Shown piece after piece: positions 630 to 10,084 of a stretch of 61,651 bases of DNA (position 1 is the first letter of the stretch; every line of letters starts with the position of its first letter). A model generated the notes under the pieces. That model was not told the origin of the DNA, searched no databases, and was given only the letters and a program-made list of their open reading frames with translations. The stretch is taken from the IMG/VR virus record IMGVR_UViG_3300038696_000188, positions 1 to 61,651 of that record; one strand, given 5' to 3'. Position numbers and translations under genes: made by a program. This DNA comes from a virus.

Positions 630-642
630 GGGGTAAAAATTT
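630..642 (+). repeat. GGGGTAAAAATTT motif, copy 1
   Basis: Perfect copy followed by CAGGGAA. It lies 22 nt before the start of the 665 mini-gene, which has no TTGAC promoter of its own. Confidence 0.7.
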
Positions 643-664
643 CAGGGAACGGAAGGACGAAAAA

Positions 665-760
665 ATGACAACTATTTATATTCACTGCTGGCGTTGTGGC
701 GAGGCTATGGCTATCGCGGAGCGCGACTACACACACGGGAAAGCCTGCGGAAAGTGTTGA
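665..760 (+). CDS. 31-aa zinc-ribbon mini-protein
   Basis: ATG preceded by GGAAGGA. The product carries CWRCG near its N-terminus and ACGKC at its end, two CxxC knuckles typical of a minimal zinc ribbon. The stop codon overlaps the promoter of the next gene. No function can be assigned. Because it is so short, the call rests on the ribosome binding site, the cysteine pairs and the close fit between neighbours. Confidence 0.55.
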   Translation: MTTIYIHCWRCGEAMAIAERDYTHGKACGKC

Positions 761-761
761 T

Positions 762-790
762 TTGACTTTTTGTATTTTGTAGTTTAGACT
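762..790 (+). promoter_or_regulatory. Sigma-A-like promoter of the 819 gene
   Basis: TTGACT 762-767, 17-bp spacer, TAGACT 785-790. It is nearly identical to the promoter at 1099 from the -35 to the -10. Confidence 0.8.
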
Positions 791-818
791 AAATACATCA
801 CAACGAAAGGGGTTCACA

Positions 819-1043
819 ATGAGCCAGAACAACATCACGGAGTACGAACTGGAAGAACGGTTCGACGACTACCTCAACAACTTCAACACTGTCTGTGTGG
901 GACTTGTCGGGGAGTCAATCACTATCCCCGCCTCACGAGTCGTGAAGCTTGCTGACCCCACGGCGTACCGCACGGGGCTGGCGAACTACGCGGACTACCT
1001 GGAGCGCGACTTCGGTATCACCACTTGGGGCTACACAAGCTAA
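819..1043 (+). CDS. Hypothetical 74-aa acidic protein
   Basis: ATG preceded by ACGAAAGGGG. The protein is acidic and hydrophilic at the N-terminus (ELEERFDDYLNNF) and ends in a Tyr/Asp-rich region (NYADYLERDFGITTWGY). No motif was recognised. It is monocistronic, with its own promoter upstream and a short GC hairpin downstream (about 1057-1072). Confidence 0.75.
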   Translation: MSQNNITEYELEERFDDYLNNFNTVCVGLVGESITIPASRVVKLADPTAYRTGLANYADYLERDFGITTWGYTS

Positions 1044-1098
1044 GCGGGCACGGCTCGCCCCCTCAGGGGGGCGGGCTGCTTGCGTGGCAAGAGTCGAT

Positions 1099-1127
1099 TT
1101 GACTTTTTGTATTCTGTAGTTTAGACT
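1099..1127 (+). promoter_or_regulatory. Sigma-A-like promoter of the 1156-1607 gene pair
   Basis: TTGACT 1099-1104, 17-bp spacer, TAGACT 1122-1127. Confidence 0.8.
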
Positions 1128-1155
1128 TTTATTACCAACAACGAAGGGAAGCATT

Positions 1156-1389
1156 ATGAATGAACGAGTAACTTCTGTAACCTACATTTGGAAAGACTCT
1201 GATGTCCCTGGGGACACGGAAGCCCAAGTCGTTATCCTCAACGACAGCGACAAGTATGACCTGATGTCTGCGGACGATAGCTTTGATGAGCGTATTTGGT
1301 TCTACTTCCAAGACGAGGCTGAGTTCCAACGAGCCTTTGACCCCACGGACGATGAGTTCGAGTTTGTGCTCACGGGAGGGCTGAGCTGA
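1156..1389 (+). CDS. Hypothetical 77-aa acidic protein
   Basis: ATG after AACGAAGGGA. Rich in Asp and Glu (DSDVPGDTEAQ, SADDSFDER, DPTDDEFEF), with a beta-strand-like start (VTSVTYIW). The stop overlaps the next ATG (ATGGA over CTGATGG at 1387-1391), so the two genes are probably translationally coupled. No family recognised. Confidence 0.75.
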   Translation: MNERVTSVTYIWKDSDVPGDTEAQVVILNDSDKYDLMSADDSFDERIWFYFQDEAEFQRAFDPTDDEFEFVLTGGLS

Positions 1390-1607
1390 TGGACGAAATA
1401 AAAAACGTGAAGGACGTGATGTTCGTGGGAGACTACTTCACGCTCATTACAAGCATACAGTTGGACGAAAGCCTGCGCACGGACGAGGACAAGGACGACG
1501 ACGATTTTGCCGTACGCCTAGCCTCTGTGTGGCTCGCGGAGTTCTACGGCTGGGACGTACTGGAAGCCTCTAACGAGGTTGGCGTGGTCGAGAGAACTCC
1601 CGAATAG
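1389..1607 (+). CDS. Hypothetical 72-aa acidic protein
   Basis: Starts inside the stop of the preceding gene (1-nt overlap). It contains an acidic run (TDEDKDDDDF) followed by an amphipathic segment (AVRLASVWLAEFYGWDVLEA). Acidic small phage proteins of this kind often bind basic host proteins, but nothing here proves it. The stop codon runs into motif copy 2. Confidence 0.7.
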   Translation: MDEIKNVKDVMFVGDYFTLITSIQLDESLRTDEDKDDDDFAVRLASVWLAEFYGWDVLEASNEVGVVERTPE

Positions 1608-1619
1608 GGGTAAAAATAT
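1607..1619 (+). repeat. GGGGTAAAAATAT motif, copy 2
   Basis: One difference from the consensus. After a 5-nt gap comes TACTCT (1625-1630), which could be a -10 box. Confidence 0.65.
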
Positions 1620-1730
1620 CACGGTACTCTGGTAGTACCCGCACGGGGTCGATGCTATCCCCCGTGCGATGAGCGGTTGCTACCCCGCGCACTTCCCCCC
1701 ACTTCCCCTGTGGGGGTGAGGTGTGTCGAT

Positions 1731-1760
1731 TTGACAAGTGTCAAGTGTCAATGCTAAACT
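1731..1760 (+). promoter_or_regulatory. Sigma-A-like promoter of the 1791 gene
   Basis: TTGACA 1731-1736, 18-bp spacer containing the direct repeat GTGTCAA, TAAACT 1755-1760. Confidence 0.8.
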
Positions 1761-1790
1761 AAATATATCAACCCAACGAAAGGACAAAAA

Positions 1791-1982
1791 ATGACTTACA
1801 AATACAACCCCACACTGCGTGACCTGCGTGACGCTTATTTCGTGGCTCACGGCGCTAGCTCTGACTCCCTGCTTATCGGGGTGCTATTTGCTCATCTACC
1901 TGCCGACACGGTTGAGCGCTTGTATGTTCAGGCTCTTGATGTAGTCCGCGAGGACTTGGAAGCGCTGGATATCTCAGCGTAA
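1791..1982 (+). CDS. Hypothetical 63-aa protein
   Basis: ATG after AACGAAAGGA. The sequence reads as two short helices (TLRDLRDAYFVAHG and ADTVERLYVQALDVVREDLEAL) joined by a hydrophobic stretch. No family recognised. It is monocistronic between its own promoter and a strong terminator. Confidence 0.75.
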   Translation: MTYKYNPTLRDLRDAYFVAHGASSDSLLIGVLFAHLPADTVERLYVQALDVVREDLEALDISA

Positions 1983-1996
1983 CCAAAAAAAAGGAG

Positions 1997-2024
1997 CGCC
2001 CCCCCACGGGGGCGTTTCTTTTTT
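1997..2024 (+). terminator. Intrinsic terminator after the 1791 gene
   Basis: Stem CGCCCCC 1997-2003 with GGGGGCG 2008-2014, then TTTCTTTTTT. Confidence 0.8.
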
Positions 2025-2034
2025 GTCTGCCCTA

Positions 2035-2047
2035 AAATTTTTACCCC
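2035..2047 (-). repeat. GGGGTAAAAATTT motif, copy 3 (inverted)
   Basis: Perfect copy on the minus strand (AAATTTTTACCCC on +), between the terminator and the next promoter. Confidence 0.65.
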
Positions 2048-2072
2048 CCCGACAACATAGCGACACGCCGAT

Positions 2073-2101
2073 TTGACTTTTTAGAGTGTGTACCCTAAAC
2101 T
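2073..2101 (+). promoter_or_regulatory. Sigma-A-like promoter of the 2134 gene
   Basis: TTGACT 2073-2078, 17-bp spacer, TAAACT 2096-2101. Confidence 0.8.
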
Positions 2102-2133
2102 ATATACATAAGCACAACAACCAGGAGGACACA

Positions 2134-2379
2134 GTGAACAACACAATCACTTGCGGACACTGCGACACCGCGATTGCTGACCAGGAAGTCTACGCTGACG
2201 ATTCTGGTGAGTACCACCAGGATTGCCAGGACGCCTACAACGAGCAGGAACAGCGCACCTGGGGCGCCCAGTACCGCGCCACCGCCAAGCCCGCACAGGA
2301 CGACCACGGCTACGATTGGGGTGACCCCAAGAACAGCGCCTACATCGAGTGGGCGACAGACCAAGCGGACGCCCGATAG
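2134..2379 (+). CDS. 81-aa zinc-finger-like protein
   Basis: GTG start chosen because CCAGGAGGAC precedes it; an upstream in-frame start at 2086 would lie inside the promoter. The N-terminal half has CGHCDTAI...DDSGEYHQDC, a CxxC...HxxxC zinc knuckle like the small phage zinc-finger proteins. The second half is hydrophilic and rich in Asp, Gln and Trp. It is followed by the GCAA-loop hairpin at 2385. Function unknown. Confidence 0.75.
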   Translation: MNNTITCGHCDTAIADQEVYADDSGEYHQDCQDAYNEQEQRTWGAQYRATAKPAQDDHGYDWGDPKNSAYIEWATDQADAR

Positions 2380-2384
2380 AACAC

Positions 2385-2402
2385 GGGGGGCGCAAGCCCC
2401 CC
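2385..2402 (+). terminator. GCAA-loop hairpin, copy 1
   Basis: GGGGGGC, GCAA loop, GCCCCCC. There is no T tract. The same 18-nt hairpin recurs at 2585, 3295 and 3883. Confidence 0.6.
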
Positions 2403-2411
2403 CACACCGAT

Positions 2412-2441
2412 TTGACAAGTGTCAGATGTCAATGCTAAACT
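2412..2441 (+). promoter_or_regulatory. Sigma-A-like promoter of the 2469 mini-gene
   Basis: TTGACA 2412-2417, 18-bp spacer, TAAACT 2436-2441. The spacer is close to that of the 1731 promoter. Confidence 0.8.
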
Positions 2442-2468
2442 ATATACATCACCAGGAAAGGGGACAAA

Positions 2469-2579
2469 ATGGAAAATCCATTTGACAATCCAGACATCAT
2501 CAACCAGGACGCCATCGACGCGATGGACGACGACACCGTCAAGACGGTGTGGGAAATCCTGACTAGGGCGGGCTACTAG
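2469..2579 (+). CDS. 36-aa acidic mini-protein
   Basis: ATG preceded by AGGAAAGGGG. The protein starts MENPFDNPDIINQ and continues with an acidic helix (AIDAMDDDTVKTVWEIL). It has its own promoter upstream and a GCAA hairpin downstream, the same one-gene cassette layout as its neighbours, which supports it being real despite its size. Function unknown. Confidence 0.65.
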   Translation: MENPFDNPDIINQDAIDAMDDDTVKTVWEILTRAGY

Positions 2580-2584
2580 CCCAC

Positions 2585-2602
2585 GGGGGGCGCAAGCCCC
2601 CC
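2585..2602 (+). terminator. GCAA-loop hairpin, copy 2
   Basis: Identical to copy 1; it starts 5 nt after the stop codon of the 2469 gene. Confidence 0.6.
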
Positions 2603-2618
2603 AACCCCCAAACCCGAT

Positions 2619-2647
2619 TTGACTTTTAGAATTTTATCCATTAGACT
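2619..2647 (+). promoter_or_regulatory. Sigma-A-like promoter of the 2682 gene
   Basis: TTGACT 2619-2624, 17-bp spacer, TAGACT 2642-2647. Confidence 0.8.
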
Positions 2648-2681
2648 TGATACATAACCACCGAATGAAAGGAAGTGGCTT

Positions 2682-2897
2682 ATGTCAGGATATGTTGTCC
2701 TCACACCCCGCGGGATTCTCGCACAATCGAGCAAGAGGGAACCCCTAGTGTTCGACACGCTACGCACCGCCCAGACCTATGTCTGGGGCAAGGACTACGA
2801 TGGTCGCAACGCGTGGTTGATATACCCCACACCCCCCAACACCGTGGACAATGGTCGCCTAGTGACCCCCACAGACTTGATGCGACTAGTTCCCTAG
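2682..2897 (+). CDS. Hypothetical 71-aa protein
   Basis: ATG with GAAAGGAAG upstream. Starts MSGYVVLTPRGILAQ and contains FDTLRTAQTYVWGKDYDGRN, so it is probably a small alpha/beta fold. A second frame overlaps it (2675-2911) but has no ribosome binding site. No family recognised. Confidence 0.75.
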   Translation: MSGYVVLTPRGILAQSSKREPLVFDTLRTAQTYVWGKDYDGRNAWLIYPTPPNTVDNGRLVTPTDLMRLVP

Positions 2898-2906
2898 TCG
2901 CAACAG

Positions 2907-2946
2907 ACTAGCCCCCCTACGCACTCGCTGCTAGGGGGGTTAGTTG
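2907..2946 (+). terminator. Terminator after the 2682 gene
   Basis: CCCCCCTA 2912-2919 pairs with TAGGGGGG 2932-2939 and is followed by the T-rich TTAGTTGTTTG. Confidence 0.65.
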
Positions 2947-2962
2947 TTTGTACAATACCGAT

Positions 2963-2991
2963 TTGACAATGTCGGTGGTCGTCAGTAGACT
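2963..2991 (+). promoter_or_regulatory. Sigma-A-like promoter of the 3017 gene
   Basis: TTGACA 2963-2968, 17-bp spacer, TAGACT 2986-2991. Confidence 0.8.
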
Positions 2992-3016
2992 AGGTACAAC
3001 AACGAAAGGACACACA

Positions 3017-3241
3017 ATGAGCAACTATCCTGAGGGCGTCACGGGCAACGAGTGGCAAATTACTGGTGCGAGTGGACACGGGTCAGATACGCAAGAAGTA
3101 CAGTGCGGTAACGAGGATTGCGACGCTTTTGAGCGCCTAGAAGAAGTAGAGGGCGAAACAACCCTATGGGAAGACGAGGGGCTTTTCGAGTGGGTGTGCC
3201 TCACTTGTGGAACCCCCGCCAGTGCGGACTACACACCCTAG
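3017..3241 (+). CDS. 74-aa zinc-ribbon protein, paralogue of the 3421 product
   Basis: ATG after AACGAAAGGA; the longer frame from 2948 runs through the promoter and was rejected. It begins MSNYPEGVTGNEWQI, has CGNEDCD in the middle and CLTCG near the end, which together form a four-cysteine zinc ribbon separated by an acidic linker. The product of 3421 shares the YPEGVTGNE start and the same cysteine spacing pattern, so the two genes are a tandem duplication. Role unknown; DNA or protein binding is only a guess. Confidence 0.8.
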   Translation: MSNYPEGVTGNEWQITGASGHGSDTQEVQCGNEDCDAFERLEEVEGETTLWEDEGLFEWVCLTCGTPASADYTP

Positions 3242-3294
3242 CGACAACCCACACCCCCGCTAGACGGGGCGACACGCTCGACGAGGACTAGCAC

Positions 3295-3312
3295 GGGGGG
3301 CGCAAGCCCCCC
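3295..3312 (+). terminator. GCAA-loop hairpin, copy 3
   Basis: Identical stem and loop to copies 1 and 2. It lies about 50 nt downstream of the 3017 gene and just before motif copy 4. Confidence 0.6.
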
Positions 3313-3322
3313 AACCCCCTAG

Positions 3323-3335
3323 GGGGTAAAAATTT
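3323..3335 (+). repeat. GGGGTAAAAATTT motif, copy 4
   Basis: Perfect copy, followed by GGAGGAATATA. It lies 27 bp upstream of the -35 box at 3363. Confidence 0.7.
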
Positions 3336-3362
3336 GGAGGAATATAGCCAAGACACACCGAT

Positions 3363-3391
3363 TTGACAATGTCGTATGTCTGATATAGACT
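3363..3391 (+). promoter_or_regulatory. Sigma-A-like promoter of the 3421 gene
   Basis: TTGACA 3363-3368, 17-bp spacer, TAGACT 3386-3391. Confidence 0.8.
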
Positions 3392-3420
3392 GTAAACATC
3401 ACCCCAACGAAAGGAACCTA

Positions 3421-3678
3421 ATGTCTGGATACTACCCCGAGGGCGTTACAGGAAATGAATTGGCGATTGCTGGACCCGACAGCGAGAAGGAAGCCACACG
3501 CGAGACTTGGTGCCGAAACCGAGAGTGCGAGGATTACACCGTCCCCCAAGAAATCGAGGGCGATGAGTGGACACACGGCGGTGAAGTCTTTTTCGATTGG
3601 ACTTGCCCCGAGTGTTCCAAGTGGCACCAGGACGAAGACGGCTACGTCGACCCTATGGGCTACCACCCCGACCTATGA
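3421..3678 (+). CDS. 85-aa zinc-ribbon protein, paralogue of the 3017 product
   Basis: ATG after AACGAAAGGA. Starts MSGYYPEGVTGNEL, with CRNREC in the first half and CPECSKWH in the second. The Cys pairs and the acidic linker match the 3017 product, but the C-terminus is longer and ends in a Tyr/Asp/Pro-rich tail. Function unknown. Confidence 0.8.
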   Translation: MSGYYPEGVTGNELAIAGPDSEKEATRETWCRNRECEDYTVPQEIEGDEWTHGGEVFFDWTCPECSKWHQDEDGYVDPMGYHPDL

Positions 3679-3692
3679 GGGGACAAGCCGAT

Positions 3693-3721
3693 TTGACATT
3701 CTAAAGTATCTACACTAAACT
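3693..3721 (+). promoter_or_regulatory. Sigma-A-like promoter of the 3749 gene
   Basis: TTGACA 3693-3698, 17-bp spacer, TAAACT 3716-3721. Confidence 0.8.
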
Positions 3722-3748
3722 AGGTATATCACAACGAAGGGACACACA

Positions 3749-3877
3749 ATGCAAATCATCGCCACCTACCCCGACTTCAAGACCGTCACCGTATCGGTAG
3801 ACCCCTGGGACGCCGACAGAGTGACAGAATCGTTTATAGAACAGGGAGTACTGTTCGTCACAACTAAAGAGGATTAG
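3749..3877 (+). CDS. 42-aa hypothetical mini-protein
   Basis: ATG after AACGAAGGGA. MQIIATYPDF, then KTVTVSVDPW, then a short helix and LFVTTKED, which reads as a tiny beta-alpha-beta unit. It keeps the one-promoter, one-gene, GCAA-hairpin layout of this arm. Confidence 0.65.
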   Translation: MQIIATYPDFKTVTVSVDPWDADRVTESFIEQGVLFVTTKED

Positions 3878-3882
3878 GACAC

Positions 3883-3900
3883 GGGGGGCGCAAGCCCCCC
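3883..3900 (+). terminator. GCAA-loop hairpin, copy 4
   Basis: Starts 6 nt after the stop of the 3749 gene and is followed directly by motif copy 5. Confidence 0.6.
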
Positions 3901-3907
3901 ACGCCCT

Positions 3908-3920
3908 GGGGTAAAAATCT
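3908..3920 (+). repeat. GGGGTAAAAATCT motif, copy 5
   Basis: One difference from the consensus. It is followed by CAGGGAACTAC and then the ribosome binding site of the 3946 gene, which has no TTGAC promoter. Confidence 0.65.
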
Positions 3921-3945
3921 CAGGGAACTACGAAAGGACAGAACA

Positions 3946-4107
3946 ATGGGAACCTACCTAAAATATGTATTCATCACCGCACTCACCACAGGGATATTCC
4001 TATCCTTCCACGACACCTACTGGACTTACGCCATCTACCCCGCAATGATTGTCTGGGGAATGATTGCCCTGGGTCTAGCGTTAGAGCGGAGAGAACGCGG
4101 AAAGTAG
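3946..4107 (+). CDS. 53-aa membrane mini-protein
   Basis: ATG after ACGAAAGGAC. Two hydrophobic stretches (YVFITALTTGIFLSF and YPAMIVWGMIALGLAL) flank a short polar loop, and the end is basic (ERRERGK), as expected for a small two-helix inner-membrane protein. A holin-like or superinfection-exclusion role is possible but unproven. Confidence 0.65.
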   Translation: MGTYLKYVFITALTTGIFLSFHDTYWTYAIYPAMIVWGMIALGLALERRERGK

Positions 4108-4121
4108 CCACACTAGTGTAG

Positions 4122-4150
4122 TTGCGCTTGCAGGGTTTTTGATGTATACT
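4122..4150 (+). promoter_or_regulatory. Leaderless promoter of the 4157 gene
   Basis: TTGCGC 4122-4127, 17-bp spacer, TATACT 4145-4150. The ATG follows after exactly 6 nt. Confidence 0.65.
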
Positions 4151-4156
4151 TTATGT

Positions 4157-4315
4157 ATGACAAAGCATAAAGGAATCGAGAACCCCGAATACGCAAAGGC
4201 TATGGCAGAACTACGCCGTAGTGGCGCTAGTGGAACCCACGCGGACAAGCGAGAGAAGCGTGCCCGAACACGCGGAGCGCAACTACGCCGTGCCGTGCGT
4301 GAGCAACACGCCTAA
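4157..4315 (+). CDS. 52-aa basic protein
   Basis: The ATG lies 6 nt after a -10 box, so the mRNA is probably leaderless; no ribosome binding site is present. The product begins MTKHKGIENPEYAKAMAELRR and ends in an Arg/Lys-rich helix (KREKRARTRGAQLRRAVREQ), consistent with nucleic-acid binding. I have the impression that proteins of this shape are common in actinobacteriophages, but I cannot name a function. Confidence 0.65.
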   Translation: MTKHKGIENPEYAKAMAELRRSGASGTHADKREKRARTRGAQLRRAVREQHA

Positions 4316-4324
4316 CACGCCGAT

Positions 4325-4353
4325 TTGACTTTTTAGATTTTATAGTTTAGACT
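4325..4353 (+). promoter_or_regulatory. Sigma-A-like promoter of the 4382 gene
   Basis: TTGACT 4325-4330, 17-bp spacer, TAGACT 4348-4353. Confidence 0.8.
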
Positions 4354-4381
4354 AGAGTAACAACGAACGAAAGGACAAAAA

Positions 4382-4528
4382 ATGCGAGTAACAATTTTAG
4401 ATAACTGCGGAGCAGTCACGCGGTACCTGTTTGACCGAAAGTACTACAGGGCGCTGGGGGATTTCTACTCACGGCTAACCCAAGAAGGAAAAATTAGAAC
4501 CTACACAATCTTCCTCAACGAGGAATAA
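4382..4528 (+). CDS. 48-aa hypothetical protein
   Basis: ATG after GAACGAAAGGA. MRVTILDNCG, then a Tyr/Arg-rich helix (YLFDRKYYRALGDFYSRL) and a final strand (IRTYTIFLNEE). No family recognised. Confidence 0.65.
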   Translation: MRVTILDNCGAVTRYLFDRKYYRALGDFYSRLTQEGKIRTYTIFLNEE

Positions 4529-4547
4529 AGAACACCTTCCCTGGTGC

Positions 4548-4600
4548 GCCCCCCTGACCAACCCCTTTCGATGTGACCCTGGTCGGGGGGGCATTTTCTT
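4548..4600 (+). terminator. Intrinsic terminator after the 4382 gene
   Basis: CCCCCTGACCA (about 4550-4560) pairs with TGGTCGGGGGG (about 4580-4590) with one G-T, followed by GCATTTTCTT. Confidence 0.7.
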
Positions 4601-4607
4601 GCCCCTA

Positions 4608-4631
4608 GGGGTAAAAATATGAGGGTAAACT
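4608..4631 (+). promoter_or_regulatory. Motif copy 6 with -10 box of the 4638 gene
   Basis: GGGGTAAAAATAT at 4608-4620, a 5-nt gap, then TAAACT at 4626-4631. The ATG follows after 6 nt. There is no TTGAC box 17 bp upstream; the motif occupies that zone. Confidence 0.6.
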
Positions 4632-4637
4632 ATAGGT

Positions 4638-4883
4638 ATGTTAGAGCCAGTCATCTTAGACCTAAAAGAACACGACAACCAAACAGGGAACCCCTACACG
4701 GTTGCCATAGTCGATGACCCCAACGATGGAAAGACCAAGTTGGTGACCATCTTTGATGGAGAAGGCGACTACTCCGTACTCTCGCTAGACAAACTTATCG
4801 AAGAAGAGAACATAGACGAGCAAGGCAACGAAAACGCAAAGTTTATTGTCGATTTTATTCTCGCAGCGCTTGTCAAGGGGTAA
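4638..4883 (+). CDS. Hypothetical 81-aa protein
   Basis: Leaderless-type ATG 6 nt after TAAACT. The sequence has the feel of an alternating beta protein (NPYTVAIVDDPNDGKTKLVTIFDGEGDYSVLSLDKLIEE) ending in a hydrophobic helix (AKFIVDFILAALVKG). Its stop codon is within motif copy 7 (GGGG/TAA). No family recognised. Confidence 0.7.
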   Translation: MLEPVILDLKEHDNQTGNPYTVAIVDDPNDGKTKLVTIFDGEGDYSVLSLDKLIEEENIDEQGNENAKFIVDFILAALVKG

Positions 4884-4889
4884 AAATTT
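4877..4889 (+). repeat. GGGGTAAAAATTT motif, copy 7
   Basis: Perfect copy; its TAA supplies the stop codon of the 4638 gene. It is followed by CAGGGAAG and a 9-codon Cys-rich frame (4898-4927). Confidence 0.7.
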
Positions 4890-4897
4890 CAGGGAAG

Positions 4898-4927
4898 ATG
4901 CGCTGCGGCTGCGCAACTTGTAAATAA
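4898..4927 (+). other. Possible 9-codon cysteine-rich leader peptide
   Basis: ATG 3-8 nt after AGGGAAG encodes MRCGCATCK and stops. The coding DNA can also fold (TGCGC with GCGCA). It may be chance; the roughly 115 nt after it before the next promoter hold no gene. Confidence 0.25.
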
Positions 4928-5009
4928 CTTCTTTTGTTTCGTTGAGGTTTTTGGTGCAGGTTTTACCACCGCCACCACCGCCACCACTAGTACCACTGAC
5001 CACTGACAC

Positions 5010-5038
5010 TTGACTTTTACAGGAAGGTGGTATAAACT
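5010..5038 (+). promoter_or_regulatory. Leaderless promoter of the 5045 gene
   Basis: TTGACT 5010-5015, 17-bp spacer, TAAACT 5033-5038, then 6 nt to the ATG. Confidence 0.75.
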
Positions 5039-5044
5039 ATTTTT

Positions 5045-5248
5045 ATGGAGAGACAAAAGAAAAGCGAACGCTACGCGGACGAAGCAAGCAAACTCTACGC
5101 AACCATCGGGTTGTCCGTAGAACAAGTTGCAAGTTATCTAAAGATTGACTACCGTACAGCACGCGAGGCTATCCAACTAAGAACACAACTACGTGACCCA
5201 AGCGCACGACTTGTGGGTCGCACAAGACCAGACAGGAGCACAAAGTGA
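5045..5248 (+). CDS. 67-aa helix-turn-helix protein
   Basis: Leaderless-type start. Residues about 17-45 (YATIGLSVEQVASYLKIDYR followed by TAREAI) form a clear helix-turn-helix with a conserved Gly-Leu-Ser turn. The C-terminus is basic. It overlaps the next gene by GTGA, so the two form a small operon. It is a plausible DNA-binding regulator for this arm, for example at the recurrent 13-bp motif, but the target is unknown. Confidence 0.75.
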   Translation: MERQKKSERYADEASKLYATIGLSVEQVASYLKIDYRTAREAIQLRTQLRDPSARLVGRTRPDRSTK

Positions 5249-5400: not shown

Positions 5401-5426
5401 GAATAAACAACTAGAAGGAGAAAAAT

Positions 5427-5822
5427 ATGTGGCTAATGAGTGAAACAGGATTTGTAAGTGCGGTAACGCACTGGGACAACCCCGAAATTATTGTTGTACG
5501 GGCTAGGGACTACGACTCCCTGACCCTTATCGCGGACTTTGCTGACCAGACTGTGAAGCACACCCCCGATAACGACTACCCCGCCCGCGTGGAAGTACCA
5601 CGCACCGTCTTTGCTGAGTGGGTTACCACGCAGATTGAGAAAATGACCTACAGCAACTACAAAGACAGAATGTACAGCACACGGGGGCGTGACTTTACCC
5701 AAGCGCTTAGTGATGTGTGGAGCACAATGCACAAAGTAGAAACAGCACGGTACCCCGAGCAAGAAGAAGAAAAAAAGGCAGAAAATAGGTACCAAGCATT
5801 GTCTTGGTACCGCGGTTACTAA
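5427..5822 (+). CDS. Hypothetical 131-aa protein
   Basis: ATG with AGAAGGAGAAA upstream. The N-terminus is beta-rich (VSAVTHWDNPEIIVVRARDYDSL is broken into short strands), the centre has charged helices, and the end carries an acidic/lysine run (PEQEEEKKAENRY). No family recognised. Followed by a strong terminator. Confidence 0.75.
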   Translation: MWLMSETGFVSAVTHWDNPEIIVVRARDYDSLTLIADFADQTVKHTPDNDYPARVEVPRTVFAEWVTTQIEKMTYSNYKDRMYSTRGRDFTQALSDVWSTMHKVETARYPEQEEEKKAENRYQALSWYRGY

Positions 5823-5842
5823 GCAGTAAGCCTAGAAAAGAG

Positions 5843-5871
5843 CCCCCCAAGCAGTTGGGGGGTTTCTTTTT
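5843..5871 (+). terminator. Intrinsic terminator after the 5427 gene
   Basis: CCCCCCAA 5843-5850, loop GCAG, TTGGGGGG 5855-5862, then TTTCTTTTT. Confidence 0.85.
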
Positions 5872-5879
5872 GCCCTAGG

Positions 5880-5903
5880 GGGGTAAAAATTCTAGGTTAT
5901 ACT
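5880..5903 (+). promoter_or_regulatory. Motif copy 8 with -10 box of the lysis genes
   Basis: GGGGTAAAAATTC at 5880-5892, a 5-nt gap, TATACT at 5898-5903. The motif-to--10 spacing is the same as at 4608. No TTGAC box is present. Confidence 0.6.
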
Positions 5904-5937
5904 GTAAAAGCAGTCGTCCAACAAACAAAGGAAAGAT

Positions 5938-6429
5938 ATGACTGATAAAAAGCAAAACCGTATTGCCCGCGATGGCGACGGTGACGGTCTGGTTGAGGAC
6001 GGCACAGTGTTTGAGCGTCCCGAAGGATTTGTCATTGACGCGGTTGATGGTGACGGCGATGGGCTTGTCCAAGATGGAACAGAGTTCGAGCGTCCTGTTG
6101 CGGAGGCAACCGTAGTACCAGAAAAGAAAAAAGCACCTAAGTCTGATGAAGGAAGCGTGGCTTGGTCGCAAGATATGTCTGTTTCTGTATCTAAACTGGT
6201 GTTCGAAAGTTTGTTCGAGCGTAACTCACGCTCTGTCGGGCTAGTACAGATTAGGCTTGTCGAAAAAGGCTATATGTCTGCTGGTTCAGATAGGCGTGGC
6301 TGGTTGAGCACTGGAACAAAGGAGGCGCTAGAGTCCTACGCCAAAGACAAAAGCATTACGGGTGCGTACAACACGGACGCTGTTGTGCGTTCATTGTTTG
6401 AGCGTACACCCGTAACTATCGCTGTCTAG
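5938..6429 (+). CDS. Peptidoglycan-binding protein with calcium-binding-like repeats
   Basis: 163 aa; ATG after AAGGAAAG. The N-terminal 60 residues hold two copies of an Asp-rich loop, DGDGDGLVEDGTVFERP and DGDGDGLVQDGTEFERP, which resemble EF-hand/dockerin calcium loops. Residues about 95-160 fit a PG_binding_1-type domain (SVGLVQIRLVEKGYM, then STGTKEALESYA, then NTDAVVRSLFERT). No amidase, muramidase or peptidase domain is present, so it may target a partner enzyme to the wall or be a virion or lysis accessory factor. The holin-like gene follows after a terminator. Without a catalytic domain it should not be called an endolysin. Confidence 0.75.
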   Translation: MTDKKQNRIARDGDGDGLVEDGTVFERPEGFVIDAVDGDGDGLVQDGTEFERPVAEATVVPEKKKAPKSDEGSVAWSQDMSVSVSKLVFESLFERNSRSVGLVQIRLVEKGYMSAGSDRRGWLSTGTKEALESYAKDKSITGAYNTDAVVRSLFERTPVTIAV

Positions 6430-6458
6430 GATAAAATATATAGTACAACATAAAATCA

Positions 6459-6511
6459 AAACCCGCTACTTGCTTTACAATAGTAAGTGGCGGGTTTGAT
6501 ATTTTTACCCC
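6459..6511 (+). terminator. Terminator merged with inverted motif copy 9
   Basis: A 13-bp stem (6459-6471 with 6485-6497, one G-T) is followed by GATATTTTTA. The T tract is at the same time the minus-strand motif copy GGGGTAAAAATAT (6499-6511). Confidence 0.8.
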
Positions 6512-6531
6512 CTCTAACCTACGGAGGAATT

Positions 6532-6780
6532 ATGTCTTGGAATAAAACAAAAGATATTGCTGGGCGAATGGTTGCGGTCTTCATCGCCACCGCGCTGGGC
6601 GTTATCGGCACTGGTGCGCTTATTGGCGTGGAAGTTTGGCAAGCAGCGTTGATGGCTGGTATTGGTGGCATAGCCACGGTGCTAGAGGGTCTTAGCCGTG
6701 CGTACCTGAAAGATGGCAACCTAAGCGCCGATGAGATTGACACGGTGTTCGCGAAGTCCGAGTCTGACCTACCAGACTAA
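6532..6780 (+). CDS. Holin, r1t-like two-helix type
   Basis: 82 aa; ATG preceded by ACGGAGGAA. Two hydrophobic spans, VAVFIATALGVIGTGALIGV and a second of WQAALMAGIGGIATVLEGL type, are separated by a short turn. The C-terminus is hydrophilic and acidic (SADEIDTVFAKSESDLPD). Size, topology and the small-residue-rich helices match the class II holins common in actinobacteriophages (r1t/phage_holin family). It would form membrane lesions that release or trigger the lytic enzyme. The neighbouring wall-binding gene supports a lysis role. Confidence 0.75.
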   Translation: MSWNKTKDIAGRMVAVFIATALGVIGTGALIGVEVWQAALMAGIGGIATVLEGLSRAYLKDGNLSADEIDTVFAKSESDLPD

Positions 6781-6794
6781 CTAGTACAACAAAA

Positions 6795-6825
6795 AGCCCC
6801 CTAGCGCTTGCTGGGGGGCTTTCTG
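6795..6825 (+). terminator. Bidirectional terminator between convergent genes
   Basis: AGCCCCC 6795-6801 pairs with GGGGGCT 6814-6820. It has T-rich sequence on the + side and, read on the minus strand, TTTTTGTTG. It separates the + holin gene from the - gene at 6834. Confidence 0.8.
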
Positions 6826-6833
6826 CTTTAGGG

Positions 6834-7094
6834 CTAGAGTCCGAATCTCTTCTGTTGCTTTCTGACCTGCCTAGCCGTGAATCGCATATTCTTTGGTGCG
6901 TCGTATGTCTGTCGCTTGGGGCGCTTGATGAGTCGCTTTATCCACCCGAAGAAAAAGTCGTCTACCGCCAAAGCACCCGCGTAGACTAGTTCGTCCATTA
7001 TGGGGCTAGAGTTCCTGCGACGCTCTTTCCTCAGGGTTGCCGTTACGCGCTGGGTAGTCCCAACTAGCATACTGTCTGGTAATCCGTAAGTCAT
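6834..7094 (-). CDS. Hypothetical 86-aa basic protein
   Basis: ATG (complement of 7092-7094) has GGAAGGAG upstream; the longer reading from 7160 would cross the promoter. The sequence holds a basic region (RVTATLRKERRRN), a hydrophobic centre (ELVYAGALAVDDFFFGWI) and a very basic end (KRLIKRPKRQT to RKQQKRFGL). No family recognised. It may bind nucleic acid or the membrane. Confidence 0.7.
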   Translation of the reverse strand: MTYGLPDSMLVGTTQRVTATLRKERRRNSSPIMDELVYAGALAVDDFFFGWIKRLIKRPKRQTYDAPKNMRFTARQVRKQQKRFGL

Positions 7095-7117
7095 TTTGAC
7101 TCCTTCCGTATGTACTA

Positions 7118-7147
7118 ATTCTAGGGCATAACCCCCACGCTTGTCAA
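7118..7147 (-). promoter_or_regulatory. Sigma-A-like promoter of the 6834-7094 gene
   Basis: On the minus strand: TTGACA (7147-7142), 18-bp spacer, TAGAAT (7123-7118). Confidence 0.75.
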
Positions 7148-7183
7148 GTCTAAACAACAAAAAAGATTTTATGTAACACCGTC

Positions 7184-7196
7184 AAATTTTTACCCT
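7184..7196 (-). repeat. AGGGTAAAAATTT motif, copy 10 (inverted)
   Basis: One mismatch at the first base. It lies upstream of the promoter at 7118. Confidence 0.55.
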
Positions 7197-7229
7197 CAAC
7201 ACGGTTACTCTCGCGATGGGCAAAAGAAA

Positions 7230-7249
7230 AGCCCCCCAAGCGGGGGGCT
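7230..7249 (-). terminator. Terminator of the 7262 gene
   Basis: AGCCCCCC/GGGGGGCT stem with a 4-nt loop. Read on the minus strand it is followed by TTTTCTTTT. Confidence 0.8.
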
Positions 7250-7261
7250 AGTCTTTAGGCG

Positions 7262-7474
7262 CTAGGCGTGGTAGTTGTCCGCGTAGACTTCTTCGCAGTT
7301 GTCGCAGGTTGGGCGCTGTCCGCCCAAGTGCCAAGCCAATTCCTTGATGAGAGTATGACGCTTGGCGTCGTAGTCTGCTTGCGGGATAACGCCCAAGCAG
7401 TAGTCTTCGTGGGCGTCGTCACCCGCGTTGTCGCAGATTTCGTAGTGGACGCTGGTGGTGAGGATTGTGGTCAT
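7262..7474 (-). CDS. Hypothetical 70-aa protein with a C-terminal CxxC
   Basis: ATG after GAAAGGGGT on the minus strand. MTTILTTSVHYEICDN, an acidic segment (AGDDAHEDYC), then a helix and CDNCEEVYADNYHA at the end. With Cys14, Cys26 and the terminal CxxC it could bind one zinc. No family recognised. Confidence 0.75.
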   Translation of the reverse strand: MTTILTTSVHYEICDNAGDDAHEDYCLGVIPQADYDAKRHTLIKELAWHLGGQRPTCDNCEEVYADNYHA

Positions 7475-7503
7475 TTTGTACCCCTTTCAGTTGGTATACC
7501 CCA

Positions 7504-7532
7504 AGCATAAAGCAGATTGTTTCTAATGTCAA
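7504..7532 (-). promoter_or_regulatory. Sigma-A-like promoter of the 7262-7474 gene
   Basis: Minus strand: TTGACA (7532-7527), 17-bp spacer, TATGCT (7509-7504). Confidence 0.75.
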
Positions 7533-7578
7533 ATTGCTAACATCTCGGGCGTGTCGGCAGCACGCGCCGGAAATAGCT

Positions 7579-7605
7579 AAGGCCCCGGTGGTTAGCCGGG
7601 GCCTT
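7579..7605 (-). terminator. GC-rich hairpin after the 7617 gene
   Basis: AAGGCCCCGG 7579-7588 pairs perfectly with CCGGGGCCTT 7596-7605. No long T tract on either side. Confidence 0.6.
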
Positions 7606-7616
7606 CTCGCGGTGCG

Positions 7617-7952
7617 CTACCGGGTGACGTGGTGGGCGGTGTAAAGCCACTCGGGGAAGTCATTCTCCCGCATGTAGTCCTCACCTTCTGTGGTCAGACT
7701 AACGTCTAGGTACTGGTCACAGTGGCACGCTACGGGGGAATCTGTTTCTCCTTCTCCAAAGAGAATGGGGTAGGCGTAAAACCCGGTGTCATCCTCTGCG
7801 GTGCCACCGTGCTCCCACGTCAATCCCCACCGTCGAGCGAATTCCTCGGCGTGCTCTTCGCATGAGTAGTCCATGAAGTCACCGCTATCGTGCCCCACAA
7901 CATATGGGGGCAACAGCTTCTCCGTGGGTGCGGTCATGGTTGAATCTGACAT
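7617..7952 (-). CDS. Hypothetical 111-aa acidic protein
   Basis: ATG after AGAGAAGGTAA on the minus strand. It contains CEEHAEEFARRWG in the first half and CHCDQYLDV further on, plus many Asp/Glu residues. The three Cys and several His could hold a metal, but the spacing matches no family I know. It is read divergently from the 8104 gene across a 150-bp region with a perfect inverted repeat. Confidence 0.75.
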   Translation of the reverse strand: MSDSTMTAPTEKLLPPYVVGHDSGDFMDYSCEEHAEEFARRWGLTWEHGGTAEDDTGFYAYPILFGEGETDSPVACHCDQYLDVSLTTEGEDYMRENDFPEWLYTAHHVTR

Positions 7953-8008
7953 GATTACCTTCTCTCTGTGTATTTGTTACTTACAGCTTATCATAGATAC
8001 GACAAAAC

Positions 8009-8040
8009 ACCTAATCGACATAATTTATTCTCGATTAGGT
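8009..8040. promoter_or_regulatory. Perfect 10-bp inverted repeat, candidate operator
   Basis: ACCTAATCGA (8009-8018) and TCGATTAGGT (8031-8040) are separated by 12 bp of AT-rich DNA. It lies between the divergent starts at 7952 (-) and 8104 (+). The half-site centres are 22 bp apart, about two helical turns, as for a dimeric repressor contacting one face of the DNA. Confidence 0.65.
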
Positions 8041-8103
8041 TATTTACACAATGTGTGCAATAATGGTACTACACCGCACAACTACACAGGGAAAGAGGAG
8101 AAC

Positions 8104-8262
8104 ATGGCAACATATACCATCACCCAGACAGTGGAGTACATCGCTAGGGGTATCGTGGCAGACTCGGAAGACGAAGCCCGTGCCATCTACCTCCAAGACC
8201 AGGACTCGTACTACTCGTCCGTGGTTGAGGAATCCATCGAAGAGGAAGAGGAAGAGGAGTAG
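8104..8262 (+). CDS. 52-aa protein with an all-glutamate tail
   Basis: ATG after AAGAGGAGAAC; the longer reading from 7873 would cross the operator and overlap the opposite gene. MATYTITQTVEYIARGIVAD is a small beta start, followed by a helix (DEARAIYLQDQDSYY) and an end with seven consecutive Glu. No family recognised. Adjacent to a strong bidirectional terminator. Confidence 0.75.
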   Translation: MATYTITQTVEYIARGIVADSEDEARAIYLQDQDSYYSSVVEESIEEEEEEE

Positions 8263-8268
8263 AGATAG

Positions 8269-8303
8269 AAAAAAGGGGGGGGCTGAAAAGTCCCCCCTTT
8301 TTT
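8269..8303. terminator. Bidirectional terminator
   Basis: AAAAAAGGGGGG (8269-8280) pairs with CCCCCCTTTTTT (8292-8303), leaving a loop of about 11 nt. Confidence 0.8.
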
Positions 8304-8376
8304 GTGCCCGGTGTAATTTGACAGCGTGGCATGCAGCTGGTATTTTGTAACACAACAACAACAACAAGGAGAAATC

Positions 8377-8715
8377 ATGACCAGAAAAACAGCAGTAATT
8401 ATTAGGACTAACCACGTCATCGAAGTCATCGACATCGGGGACAACGCACTTGGCAAGCTCCAAGGCGCCGTGGGTGGATATGTGCAAGCTATCGACCTAA
8501 GCGACACTGTGACAATGTGGCTCAACGAAGAGGGAAAGCTCACTGGGCTACCGCATAACCTACTCGGTCAGATGCACTGGGATAAGGCGTTCGGCCCCGA
8601 CACGGATACCGTGATGGGTGACGTAGTCTTCACCGGTGGCGTAGACGGTGAGGGTGACACTGTGGGACTCACTGAGCGCCACCTGAGTGACCTAACCGCG
8701 ATAGCAGTACTTTAG
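8377..8715 (+). CDS. DUF3846-like protein (plus-strand paralogue)
   Basis: 112 aa; ATG after ACAAGGAGAAATC; an upstream in-frame ATG at 8326 lies in a CAA repeat and was rejected. The core pattern (VIIRTNHVIEVIDI, LGKLQGAVGGYVQAIDL, WLNEEGKLTGLPHNLLG, then GDVVFTGGVDGEGDT) is that of the small DUF3846 family found in many phages and plasmids. Its function is unknown. The product of 9086-9424 on the opposite strand is a clear paralogue of equal length. Confidence 0.85.
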   Translation: MTRKTAVIIRTNHVIEVIDIGDNALGKLQGAVGGYVQAIDLSDTVTMWLNEEGKLTGLPHNLLGQMHWDKAFGPDTDTVMGDVVFTGGVDGEGDTVGLTERHLSDLTAIAVL

Positions 8716-8734
8716 ACCCGCGCAGCAAAAAAAA

Positions 8735-8762
8735 CCCCCGGCAAGCGCTGGGGGGTTTTTGC
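8735..8762 (+). terminator. Intrinsic terminator after the 8377 gene
   Basis: CCCCC 8735-8739 pairs with GGGGG 8751-8755 inside an A8/T5 frame, so it can work in both directions. Confidence 0.8.
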
Positions 8763-8920
8763 TTGCACCTGTGCTGTGAAAATTCCAAGGACTAGGGGCG
8801 AACTGAATCTTCTCGCATGTCACTGCAAGACCGGGTTGTGTCAGTACTGTAGGCGCGGGGGCGGGCTTAGACGTTACCTTCACCGGTTCATCGGGTGCGC
8901 CGTAAGTTGTTGCGTCTTGC
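8763..8920. other. Intergenic stretch without a recognised gene
   Basis: This is part of the 370-bp gap between the convergent genes at 8377 (+) and 9086 (-). A frame runs through it (8776-9102 on +) but has no ribosome binding site and crosses the tandem repeat. I see no gene here. It could be the remains of a deleted one. Confidence 0.4.
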
Positions 8921-9054
8921 GGGGGGTAAAAATTTGGGGGAGGGGTCGCTGCCACTCGTGTCCAACAAAAAACCCCCGCTGTTGGGCGGGGGGTAAAAAT
9001 TTGGGGGAGGGGTCGCTGCCACTCGTGTCCAACAAAAAACCCCCGCTGTTGGGC
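8921..9054. repeat. Two exact tandem copies of a 67-bp unit
   Basis: Units 8921-8987 and 8988-9054 are identical by eye. Each holds one GGGGTAAAAATTT motif (8923-8935 and 8990-9002, copies 11 and 12) and a terminator that works on the minus strand (CCCCCGC/GCGGGGG followed by TTTTTT). The second terminator serves the 9086 gene. Confidence 0.85.
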
Positions 9055-9085
9055 GGGGGCTCTTTGCTCTTGCTGTTGCGTGGTG

Positions 9086-9424
9086 TTAGGCGCTTGCGGT
9101 AACGCTTGCTACCAGATTTTTTAGGGCGTCATCGTCAAGCCCAAGCGTATCGCCGTTGCTATCCGTGCCACCAGTCAGAACTGCGTCGCCCACAATAATG
9201 TCCGCGCCAGTCCCAAAGCGTAGGTCAAAAAAGCGCTGGGCTAGTGCGTTGTGTGGCAAGTCCTCTAACTTTCCCTCTTCATTTACCCAAAGCGTCAGGT
9301 TATTGTTCAGGTCAATCGCTTGTACCCACCCGCCCACGGCTTTCTGTAACACGGAGAGAGAGTCGCTCCCAAAGTCTACGACCTCAGTTTCTCCCGTGGT
9401 CTTGATAATAATTACATTCCTCAT
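9086..9424 (-). CDS. DUF3846-like protein (minus-strand paralogue)
   Basis: 112 aa; ATG after AGAAAGGAATC on the minus strand. It shares LQKAVGGWVQAIDL, LWVNEEGKLEDLPHNALAQ and GDAVLTGGTDSNGDT with the product of 8377, in the same order and spacing. The pair must have arisen by duplication and inversion. It has its own promoter at 9451-9479 and a duplicated terminator. Confidence 0.85.
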   Translation of the reverse strand: MRNVIIIKTTGETEVVDFGSDSLSVLQKAVGGWVQAIDLNNNLTLWVNEEGKLEDLPHNALAQRFFDLRFGTGADIIVGDAVLTGGTDSNGDTLGLDDDALKNLVASVTASA

Positions 9425-9450
9425 AATGATTCCTTTCTTGTTGTGTGTTT

Positions 9451-9479
9451 AGTCTACTACTAAACTAATATAAAGTCAA
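9451..9479 (-). promoter_or_regulatory. Sigma-A-like promoter of the 9086-9424 gene
   Basis: Minus strand: TTGACT (9479-9474), 17-bp spacer, TAGACT (9456-9451). The same consensus as the + genes. Confidence 0.8.
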
Positions 9480-9670
9480 ACTAGGATTTCTGGGTCTGCC
9501 AAGACAAGCACCTCTTGCTCATCAAAGTATTCGCCAGTGCTGTTATCAAGTACTCTCACGAGACGGGCTAAGTGTGTGCGGTTGATAGTCAAGCGCAGAT
9601 GCTCAAGCGTGCCTACGCTGTGCGTAAAAGTACGCCCTAGCGCTGTTGTGATGGTTACTGTGTACGACAT
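9476..9670 (-). CDS. Hypothetical 64-aa protein
   Basis: The ATG at 9670 has GGAAGGAAG upstream, which is better than the longer frame from 9718. MSYTVTITTALGRTFTHSV is a beta hairpin, then a helix (LEHLRLTINRTHLARLVRV) and an acidic beta end (EYFDEQEVLVLADPEILV). The stop lies inside the -35 box of the next gene. No family recognised. Confidence 0.7.
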   Translation of the reverse strand: MSYTVTITTALGRTFTHSVGTLEHLRLTINRTHLARLVRVLDNSTGEYFDEQEVLVLADPEILV

Positions 9671-9750
9671 AGTCTTCCTTCCTTCTCTCTTAGACACCGT
9701 AAGCGCCCAAGCCCACACACGGTGAACTTGAGCGCCCTAGGCGTTAGGTC

Positions 9751-9960
9751 TTAGGCGTTGGGGCTCTCCCAAGGCAAGGTGCCATAGGCGAGCGTTGCCA
9801 AGTGATGAAAGCCAAGCACCTGGTTATTGTAAGTGGCTTCGACGATTCCCGTGCCAAAGTCGCGTCGTGCGTCACTAGCGAACTTGCGCACTTGCTCTAC
9901 AGTGTCAATGACAAAGCCGTAGGTGACTCCATTGGTGTCGCGTGCTGTGATTCCAAACAT
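9751..9960 (-). CDS. Hypothetical 69-aa protein
   Basis: ATG after AAGAAAGGACAC on the minus strand. MFGITARDTNGVTYGFVIDT, then a helix (VEQVRKFASDARRDFG) and FHHLATLAYGTLPWES. It reads as a compact alpha/beta fold. No family recognised. It has its own promoter, as most genes in this block do. Confidence 0.75.
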   Translation of the reverse strand: MFGITARDTNGVTYGFVIDTVEQVRKFASDARRDFGTGIVEATYNNQVLGFHHLATLAYGTLPWESPNA

Positions 9961-9996
9961 AGTGTGTCCTTTCTTAGGGGGTGTTGCTTATAGACA

Positions 9997-10025
9997 AGGG
10001 TACACAACATACAAGAAAATGTCAA
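9997..10025 (-). promoter_or_regulatory. Promoter of the 9751-9960 gene
   Basis: Minus strand: TTGACA (10025-10020), 17-bp spacer, TACCCT (10002-9997). The -10 is weaker than in the neighbours. Confidence 0.6.
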
Positions 10026-10071
10026 GTCCTCACCCTATTGGCGTGGCAAGATGCGGGGCGTGGTGTTGAGG

Positions 10072-10084
10072 GGGGTAAAAATTT
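10072..10084 (+). repeat. GGGGTAAAAATTT motif, copy 13
   Basis: Perfect copy followed by GGGGG, as in copies 11 and 12. It is the last copy seen in the window. Confidence 0.65.

What the first reader, a model, noticed from the sequence alone, without database searches (positions are those of the whole stretch)
630..10084. 13-bp motif GGGGTAAAAATTT repeated 13 times in left-arm intergenic DNA
Copies lie at 630, 1607, 2035(-), 3323, 3908, 4608, 4877, 5880, 6499(-), 7184(-), 8923, 8990 and 10072; I noticed none after 10.1 kb. The core GGGTAAAAAT is invariant and an AGGG-type extension often follows. All copies are intergenic, apart from one that supplies a stop codon. This recalls the stoperators and start-associated sequences of mycobacteriophages, but the sequence is different.
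Basis: partly seen in the sequence, partly recalled or inferred. Interest (0 to 1): 0.8.

Follow-up and report, generated by a model that had tools for sequence, protein, structure and literature searches.

The report
Repeated gene-boundary DNA sites in actinophages
A short DNA word is repeated 13 times between the small genes at one end of an uncultured actinobacterial virus, and related viruses carry the same word or a changed one in the same kind of place, so it is probably a set of docking sites for a viral control protein, similar in idea to sites known from other phages but not the same.

Summary
GGGGTAAAAATTT (core GGGTAAAAAT in 13 of 13) is at all 13 stated places; the core has no other exact copy in the window. 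The window is a fragment of an uncultured phage. In 80 portal-gene relatives plus the window, GGGTAAAA occurs 249 times in 400 kb left of portal and 13 times in 611 kb right of it. In 11 motif-rich arms, copies sit mostly between genes or at stop codons, mostly on the coding strand; a ~13-bp footprint is conserved. Antisense copies are enriched too (22 against a mean of 0.6), so recognition is at least partly of DNA. Relative L111 has another word, TGTGAAAATTCCAAGGA, in the same place as the window's word at 2 of 6 comparable junctions, near it at a third, and none at three.

Best reading, about even odds: operator/stoperator-like sites for a phage DNA-binding protein. The 67-aa HTH protein at 5045 is the leading candidate. 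Binding, binder and sign are inferred. It is not filed as a Cluster A stoperator or a Cluster K SAS, because tested features are not met. One copy precedes an unrecognised structured RNA with compensatory changes.

The parts
630..642 (+). motif copy after the hairpin that follows gene 261-581, 22 nt before ATG 665
   Evidence: L111 has its own word at the equivalent junction
1607..1619 (+). motif copy starting on the last base of the TAG of gene 1389-1607; leads into the RNA candidate
2035..2047 (-). motif copy, antisense to both neighbouring genes, upstream of a TTGACT promoter-like box at about 2073
3323..3335 (+). motif copy after a hairpin, upstream of a TTGACA box at about 3362
3908..3920 (+). 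motif copy, 25 nt before ATG 3946
4608..4620 (+). motif copy with -10-like TAAACT, 17 nt before ATG 4638
4877..4889 (+). motif copy that contains the stop codon of ORF 4638-4883, between it and the HTH gene
   Evidence: L111 has its own word at the equivalent junction
5880..5892 (+). motif copy after a terminator-like hairpin, with -10-like TATACT
6499..6511 (-). motif copy, antisense to both neighbouring genes
7184..7196 (-). motif copy with A as first base, upstream of leftward gene 6834-7094
8923..8935 (+). motif copy, first of a 67-bp tandem duplication
8990..9002 (+). motif copy, second of the duplication
10072..10084 (+). motif copy between leftward genes, antisense to them
8775..8791 (+). 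single copy of the word of lineage L111 (TGTGAAAATTCCAAGGA), inside a module shared with L111
5045..5248 (+). 67-aa HTH protein with C-terminal RLVGRTRPD arm, candidate binder (inferred)
   Evidence: sub-threshold HTH_23 and HTH_17 matches, family alignment, predicted helices
1621..1730 (+). candidate structured RNA beginning at the motif's -10-like box
   Evidence: 26-sequence alignment: 16 pairs, 12 with changes on both sides; no Rfam family at gathering score

Best explanation
The 13-mer is a double-stranded DNA binding site, repeated at boundaries of transcription units in the small-gene arm and bound by a phage-encoded regulator, probably as a monomer because the site is asymmetric. Bound protein blocks or gates transcription, either polymerase reading through from the unit upstream or initiation just downstream, so the arm can be shut down or timed as one regulon. 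The candidate is the HTH protein at 5045: its helix could read the G-rich half, which varies by lineage, and its RLVGRTRP arm the A-tract. Shown: the array, its restriction to this arm, boundary placement, strand bias with real antisense copies, footprint conservation, other words in other lineages. Inferred: that a protein binds, that it is this one, that the effect is on transcription, and its sign.
For: 249 GGGTAAAA in 400 kb left of portal against 13 in 611 kb right of it, in all 80 portal loci plus the window. In 11 motif-rich arms, 163 of 209 copies are outside gene interiors, while permuted 8-mers are 65% inside. 175 of 209 are on the coding-direction strand, permuted words 72%. 127 lie between codirectional genes in their direction (permuted mean 2.6), and 22 are antisense to both neighbours (mean 0.58, maximum 4), which argues for recognition of DNA. 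Identity 0.87 in the 13 bp against 0.78-0.79 outside at 92 sites. A terminator-like hairpin lies 0-40 nt upstream in 19.6% of 163 against 6.0% of random noncoding positions. The word changes by lineage, with L111's word at the same junction as the window's in 2 of 6 comparable places. Cluster A stoperators show strand bias and lineage-specific words that follow the repressor (PMC6550527, PMC9283540, passages seen).
Against: No binding or expression data. At 3 of 6 comparable junctions L111 has no such word. HTH and word do not track tightly: L139 (AGGTAAAAA leads) and L138 (GGGTAAAAA) have nearly the same HTH, and the L153 and L174 lineages share the arm VGRTSPTGKK with different words. Genes 4638 (39 records), 5245 (39), 1389 (35), 8377 (48) and 9086 (49) are about as widespread as the HTH gene (42). 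No tyrosine integrase in 11 records and no HTH_3 repressor in 8. 46 of 209 copies lie inside predicted genes. The 11 arms were picked for having the motif.
Confidence: 0.48

Rival explanations
1. Activator or promoter element: a protein or polymerase contact at the motif replaces a missing -35 box, so genes with a motif and no TTGAC box are transcribed from motif-dependent promoters.
For: At 1607, 4608 and 5880 a TAnnnT box begins 17 nt after the first G of GGGTAAAA and I see no TTGAC box. The 1607 spacing recurs at 15-17 nt at the same RNA junction in G001, G002, G007, G008 and L016. Where the window has the motif upstream of gene 3946, L111 has a TTGACA promoter-like sequence.
Against: Over 209 copies in 11 arms only 5 have TAnnnT at 17 nt, and no offset stands out. 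Upstream -35 boxes show no common position. No sigma-70 region 2 family in 11 records. Copies are also antisense or touch start and stop codons.
Confidence: 0.2
2. mRNA element at gene starts, like SAS: it aids or regulates translation.
For: 46 of 161 noncoding copies end within 6 nt of a predicted start; ATG begins 8 or 9 nt after the first G of GGGTAAAA in 37 of 209; strand bias.
Against: In the window no copy abuts an assigned start. 22 antisense copies against 0.58 expected, 11 against 0.46 without the G014 lineage. The extended word GGGGTAAAAATTTtAGGG is kept in antisense copy 2035.
Confidence: 0.15
3. Host-derived site: the phage uses a host DNA-binding or nucleoid protein.
For: A-tracts are bound by many nucleoid proteins (general knowledge); the host is unknown.
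Against: GGGGTAAAAATTTNAGGG has 29 single hits in genome contigs (about 30 expected by chance for 17 fixed bases in 257 Gb), none with an actinobacterial title and one untitled as to phylum. The word drifts between related phages.
Confidence: 0.07
4. Boundary sequence for recombination between gene modules.
For: Copies lie at gene borders, and a 1.3-kb module (7593-8907) shared with L111 and absent from L011 lies between sites 7184 and 8923.
Against: A recombination signal should keep one word across exchanging phages, but the lineages differ, and the module brought the other lineage's word with it.
Confidence: 0.06

Closest known systems
Stoperators/operators of Cluster A mycobacteriophages (L5 and relatives)
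   Same: Asymmetric 13-mer in many copies, in short intergenic spaces and at promoters, mostly in one orientation to transcription, lineage-specific words (PMC9283540, PMC6550527, passages seen).
   Different: Other sequence. Confined to one arm in the window and mainly left of portal in relatives. The candidate protein is 67 aa, not about 183, and has no second domain. No integrase found.
Start-associated sequences (SAS) of Cluster K mycobacteriophages
   Same: Asymmetric 13-mer of unknown function, restricted to the non-structural half, mostly one orientation, sometimes containing the stop codon of the upstream gene (PMC3203893, passages seen).
   Different: SAS lie 3-7 bp before start codons and contain AGGAG; the window's copies do not, and only 46 of 161 noncoding copies in relatives are close to a start.
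Left-arm repeats of Actinomycetia phage DSL-LC01 (OQ999401)
   Same: Nearest named relative (portal 70%); 17 copies of a left-arm word and a distant HTH homologue with a GRTR arm (only E 0.8 in the phage collection).
   Different: Its word, read on the coding strand GATTCTAAAGATGTTATAAT, runs into a TATAAT box. It has 0 GGGTAAAAAT and 1 GGGTAAAA.

Membership tests
Cluster A stoperator system | asymmetric 13-mer repeated in intergenic or promoter positions | tested here: met
   13 copies, 12 intergenic and 1 at a stop by the gene call
Cluster A stoperator system | orientation follows transcription | tested here: met
   175 of 209 against 72% for permuted words in 11 motif-rich arms; in the window by my reading 8 sense, 3 antisense, 2 between convergent genes
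Cluster A stoperator system | consensus word of L5 (recalled) | tested here: not met
   1 match with up to 2 mismatches, 2.81 expected
Cluster A stoperator system | sites throughout the genome | tested here: not met
   no exact core after 10,084 in the window
Cluster A stoperator system | bound by the two-domain immunity repressor; reversal abolishes repression | not testable with these tools
   needs binding and reporter assays; no search for a Cluster A repressor homologue was made
Cluster K SAS | 3-7 bp before the start codon in virtually all copies | tested here: not met
   window: nearest assigned start on the motif strand 17 nt away; relatives 46 of 161 within 6 nt
Cluster K SAS | word GGGATAGGAGCCC with the ribosome-binding core AGGAG | tested here: not met
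   2 matches with up to 2 mismatches, 1.14 expected
Cluster K SAS | restricted to the non-structural part | tested here: met
   249 left of portal, 13 right of it
Sigma-factor promoter element | -10-like box at a fixed distance in most copies | tested here: not met
   5 of 209 at 17 nt, no offset stands out

The most novel reading that the evidence does not exclude
A new kind of genome-arm switch: a roughly 65-aa, single-domain HTH protein with a GRTRP minor-groove arm binds, as a monomer, an asymmetric 13-mer at many unit boundaries of the small-gene arm. The word diverges so fast that related lineages carry different words at the same junctions, and the switch also controls a conserved structured phage RNA made from the site at 1607.
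Probability: 0.22. Interest if true: 0.75.

Novelty: new variant of a known kind. Interest (0 to 1): 0.55.

Why it matters
The relatives found here are nearly all uncultured metagenome contigs, so nothing direct is known of how these actinophages time their genes. A family-wide array whose word changes by lineage while its place is often kept would let one test how repeated control sites and their protein change together, a question studied so far in Cluster A mycobacteriophages. Because some lineages place the word at start codons and others at unit ends, it also bears on the still unexplained SAS elements of Cluster K.

Tried and rejected
Known words: the L5 stoperator (recalled) and SAS are not enriched in the window. 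General promoter element: no common offset of -10-like or -35-like boxes. A second promoter scan showed a peak at -20 to -16, which I discarded because the motif's own TAAAAAT satisfies the -10 rule; the excess 10-36 nt downstream is mild and inflated by near-identical loci. Sigma-70 region 2: 0 of 11 records. Single-subunit RNA polymerase PF00940: 0 of 11, but its controls were silent, so inconclusive. Tyrosine integrase: 0 of 11. HTH_3: 0 of 8. Serine recombinase PF00239: 7 of 14; lysogeny stays open, and DSL-LC01 was called lysogenic by a predictor (PMC10611076, passages seen). Rfam: 11 matches below gathering score in window 1-13,000, none at gathering score in seven relatives. Fold look: generic HTH matches only, best Z 5.5. 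Sequence profile against PDB: 15 matches up to E 1, best 8vd6 at E 1.1e-5 over 25 residues with no stretch passing alone, then an IS21-type transposase at E 5.4e-4. Literature, by search listing only: GGGTAAAAAT in text, 24 papers, 20 listed, none of the titles on actinophages; three topic searches. I found no description of the array; these searches cover only open-licence PMC papers.

Limits. The first left/right count (235 against 9) used 38 of the 80 portal loci that I had chosen after seeing motif counts, plus the window; I recounted on all 80 plus the window and report that. Loci overlap and repeat: 172 of the 249 left hits are distinct in a 40-base context. The 11 arms and the 7 relatives were picked for having many copies, so their enrichment over permuted words is partly by choice; their placement is not. 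The gene caller is crude: in the window it missed 4157-4315 and 5045-5248 and, in my judgment, put two genes on the wrong strand (246-623, 7268-7510). Lineage words were chosen by eye from top k-mers. In the RNA alignment I used 26 of the 36 stretches: eight had a wrong anchor (L111, L092, L167, L169, L182, L183, L107, L074) and two were left out as near-duplicates (L138, L121); in 12 further loci no anchor was found.
Full report
What is there. The word GGGGTAAAAATTT is at each of the 13 places given, on the strands given; the core GGGTAAAAAT is identical in all and has no other exact copy in the window. Shuffles give about 2 matches with up to 2 mismatches against 14 seen. Two copies touch stop codons (1607, 4877) and two (8923, 8990) are one 67-bp duplication.

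Whose genome. The window is a 61,651-base virus record. Its portal protein is 70% identical to that of Actinomycetia phage DSL-LC01 and 58-61% to those of several Microbacterium phages. DSL-LC01 has no exact GGGTAAAAAT; the first 50 kb of Zooman, of Pumpernickel and of Racecar have no GGGTAAAA. A portal search of IMG/VR kept 80 of 368 relatives; L011 is a 99% sister.

Conservation. In all 80 loci plus the window, GGGTAAAA occurs 249 times in 400 kb left of portal (172 distinct in a 40-base context) and 13 times in 611 kb right of it. Of 26 stretches with at least 7 kb to the left, 25 have it there; L036 does not. Of 20 whole records searched, 16 have the 10-mer, and in the rich ones it clusters in one region. 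In 7 related arms that I picked for having copies, GGGTAAAAA or GGGGTAAAA is the most enriched 9-mer de novo; in DSL-LC01 ribosome-site and promoter words lead instead. Around 92 sites with diverged homologues, identity is 0.87 in the 13 bp against 0.78 and 0.79 outside.

Relation to genes. In 11 motif-rich arms there are 209 copies: 132 intergenic, 26 at stops, 5 at starts, 46 inside predicted genes; permuted 8-mers fall inside genes 65% of the time. 175 of 209 are in the main gene direction against 72% for permuted words. 127 lie between codirectional genes in the same direction (permuted mean 2.6); 22 are antisense to both neighbours (permuted mean 0.58, maximum 4), 11 of these in the G014 lineage, which has inverted pairs. 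Distances cluster near the upstream stop codon or 50-90 nt beyond it, and 46 of 161 end within 6 nt of a start. A terminator-like hairpin lies 0-40 nt upstream in 19.6% of 163 copies against 6.0% of random noncoding positions. The element therefore marks boundaries between transcription units, and the antisense copies show that it is not only an RNA signal.

Words drift, places are partly kept. A search with the HTH family (its patterns favour the helix YRTAR) brought lineages whose top words include AGGTAAAAA, AAGTAAAAA, GGGGAAAAA and GGAAAAAAA. L111, whose HTH protein is the closest to the window's after L011 (66%), has no GGGTAAAA but 13 TGTGAAAA, 7 of them continuing as TGAAAATTCC; permuted words have a mean of 0.40 and a maximum of 11. 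I compared seven junctions; six have a counterpart in L111. At two (630, 4877) L111 has its own word in the same place. At a third (5880) it has it after a terminator before the orthologue of gene 5938, with one more gene between. At three (1607, 3908, 4608) it has none, and at 1607 and 3908 a TTGACA promoter-like sequence stands there. The window carries one L111-type word at 8775, inside a module (7593-8907, 85-96% identical pieces) shared with L111 and missing from L011.

The candidate protein. ORF 5045-5248 has sub-threshold HTH_23 and HTH_17 matches and homologues in 42 locus records, overlapping ones included. In the 14-sequence alignment YRTAR is kept in 13 of 14, the exception being DSL-LC01 with YGKAR, and GRT of the arm is invariant. 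The predicted fold has three main helices (mean pLDDT 76) with only generic HTH likenesses, among them gamma-delta resolvase and sigma region 4 at Z below 6. In L111 the word lies between gene 4638 and the HTH gene, as in the window. Against a tight link: nearly identical HTH proteins occur with different words, the DSL-LC01 homologue is a weak match, and several other genes of the arm are as widespread.

Promoters. At 1607, 4608 and 5880 a -10-like box lies 17 nt from the first G of GGGTAAAA and I see no TTGAC box, but over the family no offset stands out. Activation stays a rival, not the main reading.

The RNA. Copy 1607 leads into a stretch that recurs after the orthologues of gene 1389. 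26 sequences give 16 predicted pairs, 12 with changes on both sides; no Rfam family reaches its gathering score. Expression is not shown.

Known systems. In form the array resembles Cluster A stoperators and shares traits with Cluster K SAS, whose role is still called unknown or ill-defined (PMC11373665, passages seen). Tested features of both are not met, so I file it under neither. The host-site idea gets no support from genome contigs: 29 single hits, about 30 expected by chance.

Verdict. A real, conserved, lineage-drifting array of DNA sites. The mechanism is most likely operator/stoperator-like, at about even odds; the binder is a candidate only.

Noticed in passing
window 1621-1730 (+): Candidate structured RNA after the motif at 1607, recurring after orthologues of gene 1389 in relatives; 12 of 16 predicted pairs have changes on both sides, no Rfam family at gathering score.
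   Followed up: partly
window 7593-8907: Module shared with lineage L111 in inverted order (85-96% identical pieces), absent from sister contig L011, carrying one L111-type word at 8775.
   Followed up: yes
window 185-4354: A second repeated element: promoter-like CGATTTGAC...TAGACT/TAAACT sequences before many small genes (CGATTTGAC 10 copies in the left 11.3 kb).
   Followed up: no
window 8922-9059: 67-bp tandem duplication that contains motif copies 8923 and 8990.
   Followed up: yes
L001 24795-43314: DSL-LC01: 17 leftward matches of TAACATCTT, on the other strand GATTCTAAAGATGTTATAAT-like, a repeated promoter-like word in its left arm.
   Followed up: partly
L099/L100 (record G014): Motif flanked as TATATATAGAAGAGGGGTAAAA, and in inverted pairs 23-28 bp apart.
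   Followed up: no
relatives such as L014, L016, L035; window about 5019: CAGGAAGGT within the spacer of promoter-like sequences.
   Followed up: no
records G001, G008, G012, G016, G017, G021 and DSL-LC01: Small serine recombinase (open frames 222-252 aa) in 7 of 14 records; role unknown.
   Followed up: no
window 56131-56667: WhiB-like protein (Pfam Whib, E 1.1e-16).
   Followed up: no
window 8377-8715 (+) and 9086-9424 (-): Two homologous small proteins that face each other on opposite strands; 9086-9424 matches DUF3846.
   Followed up: no
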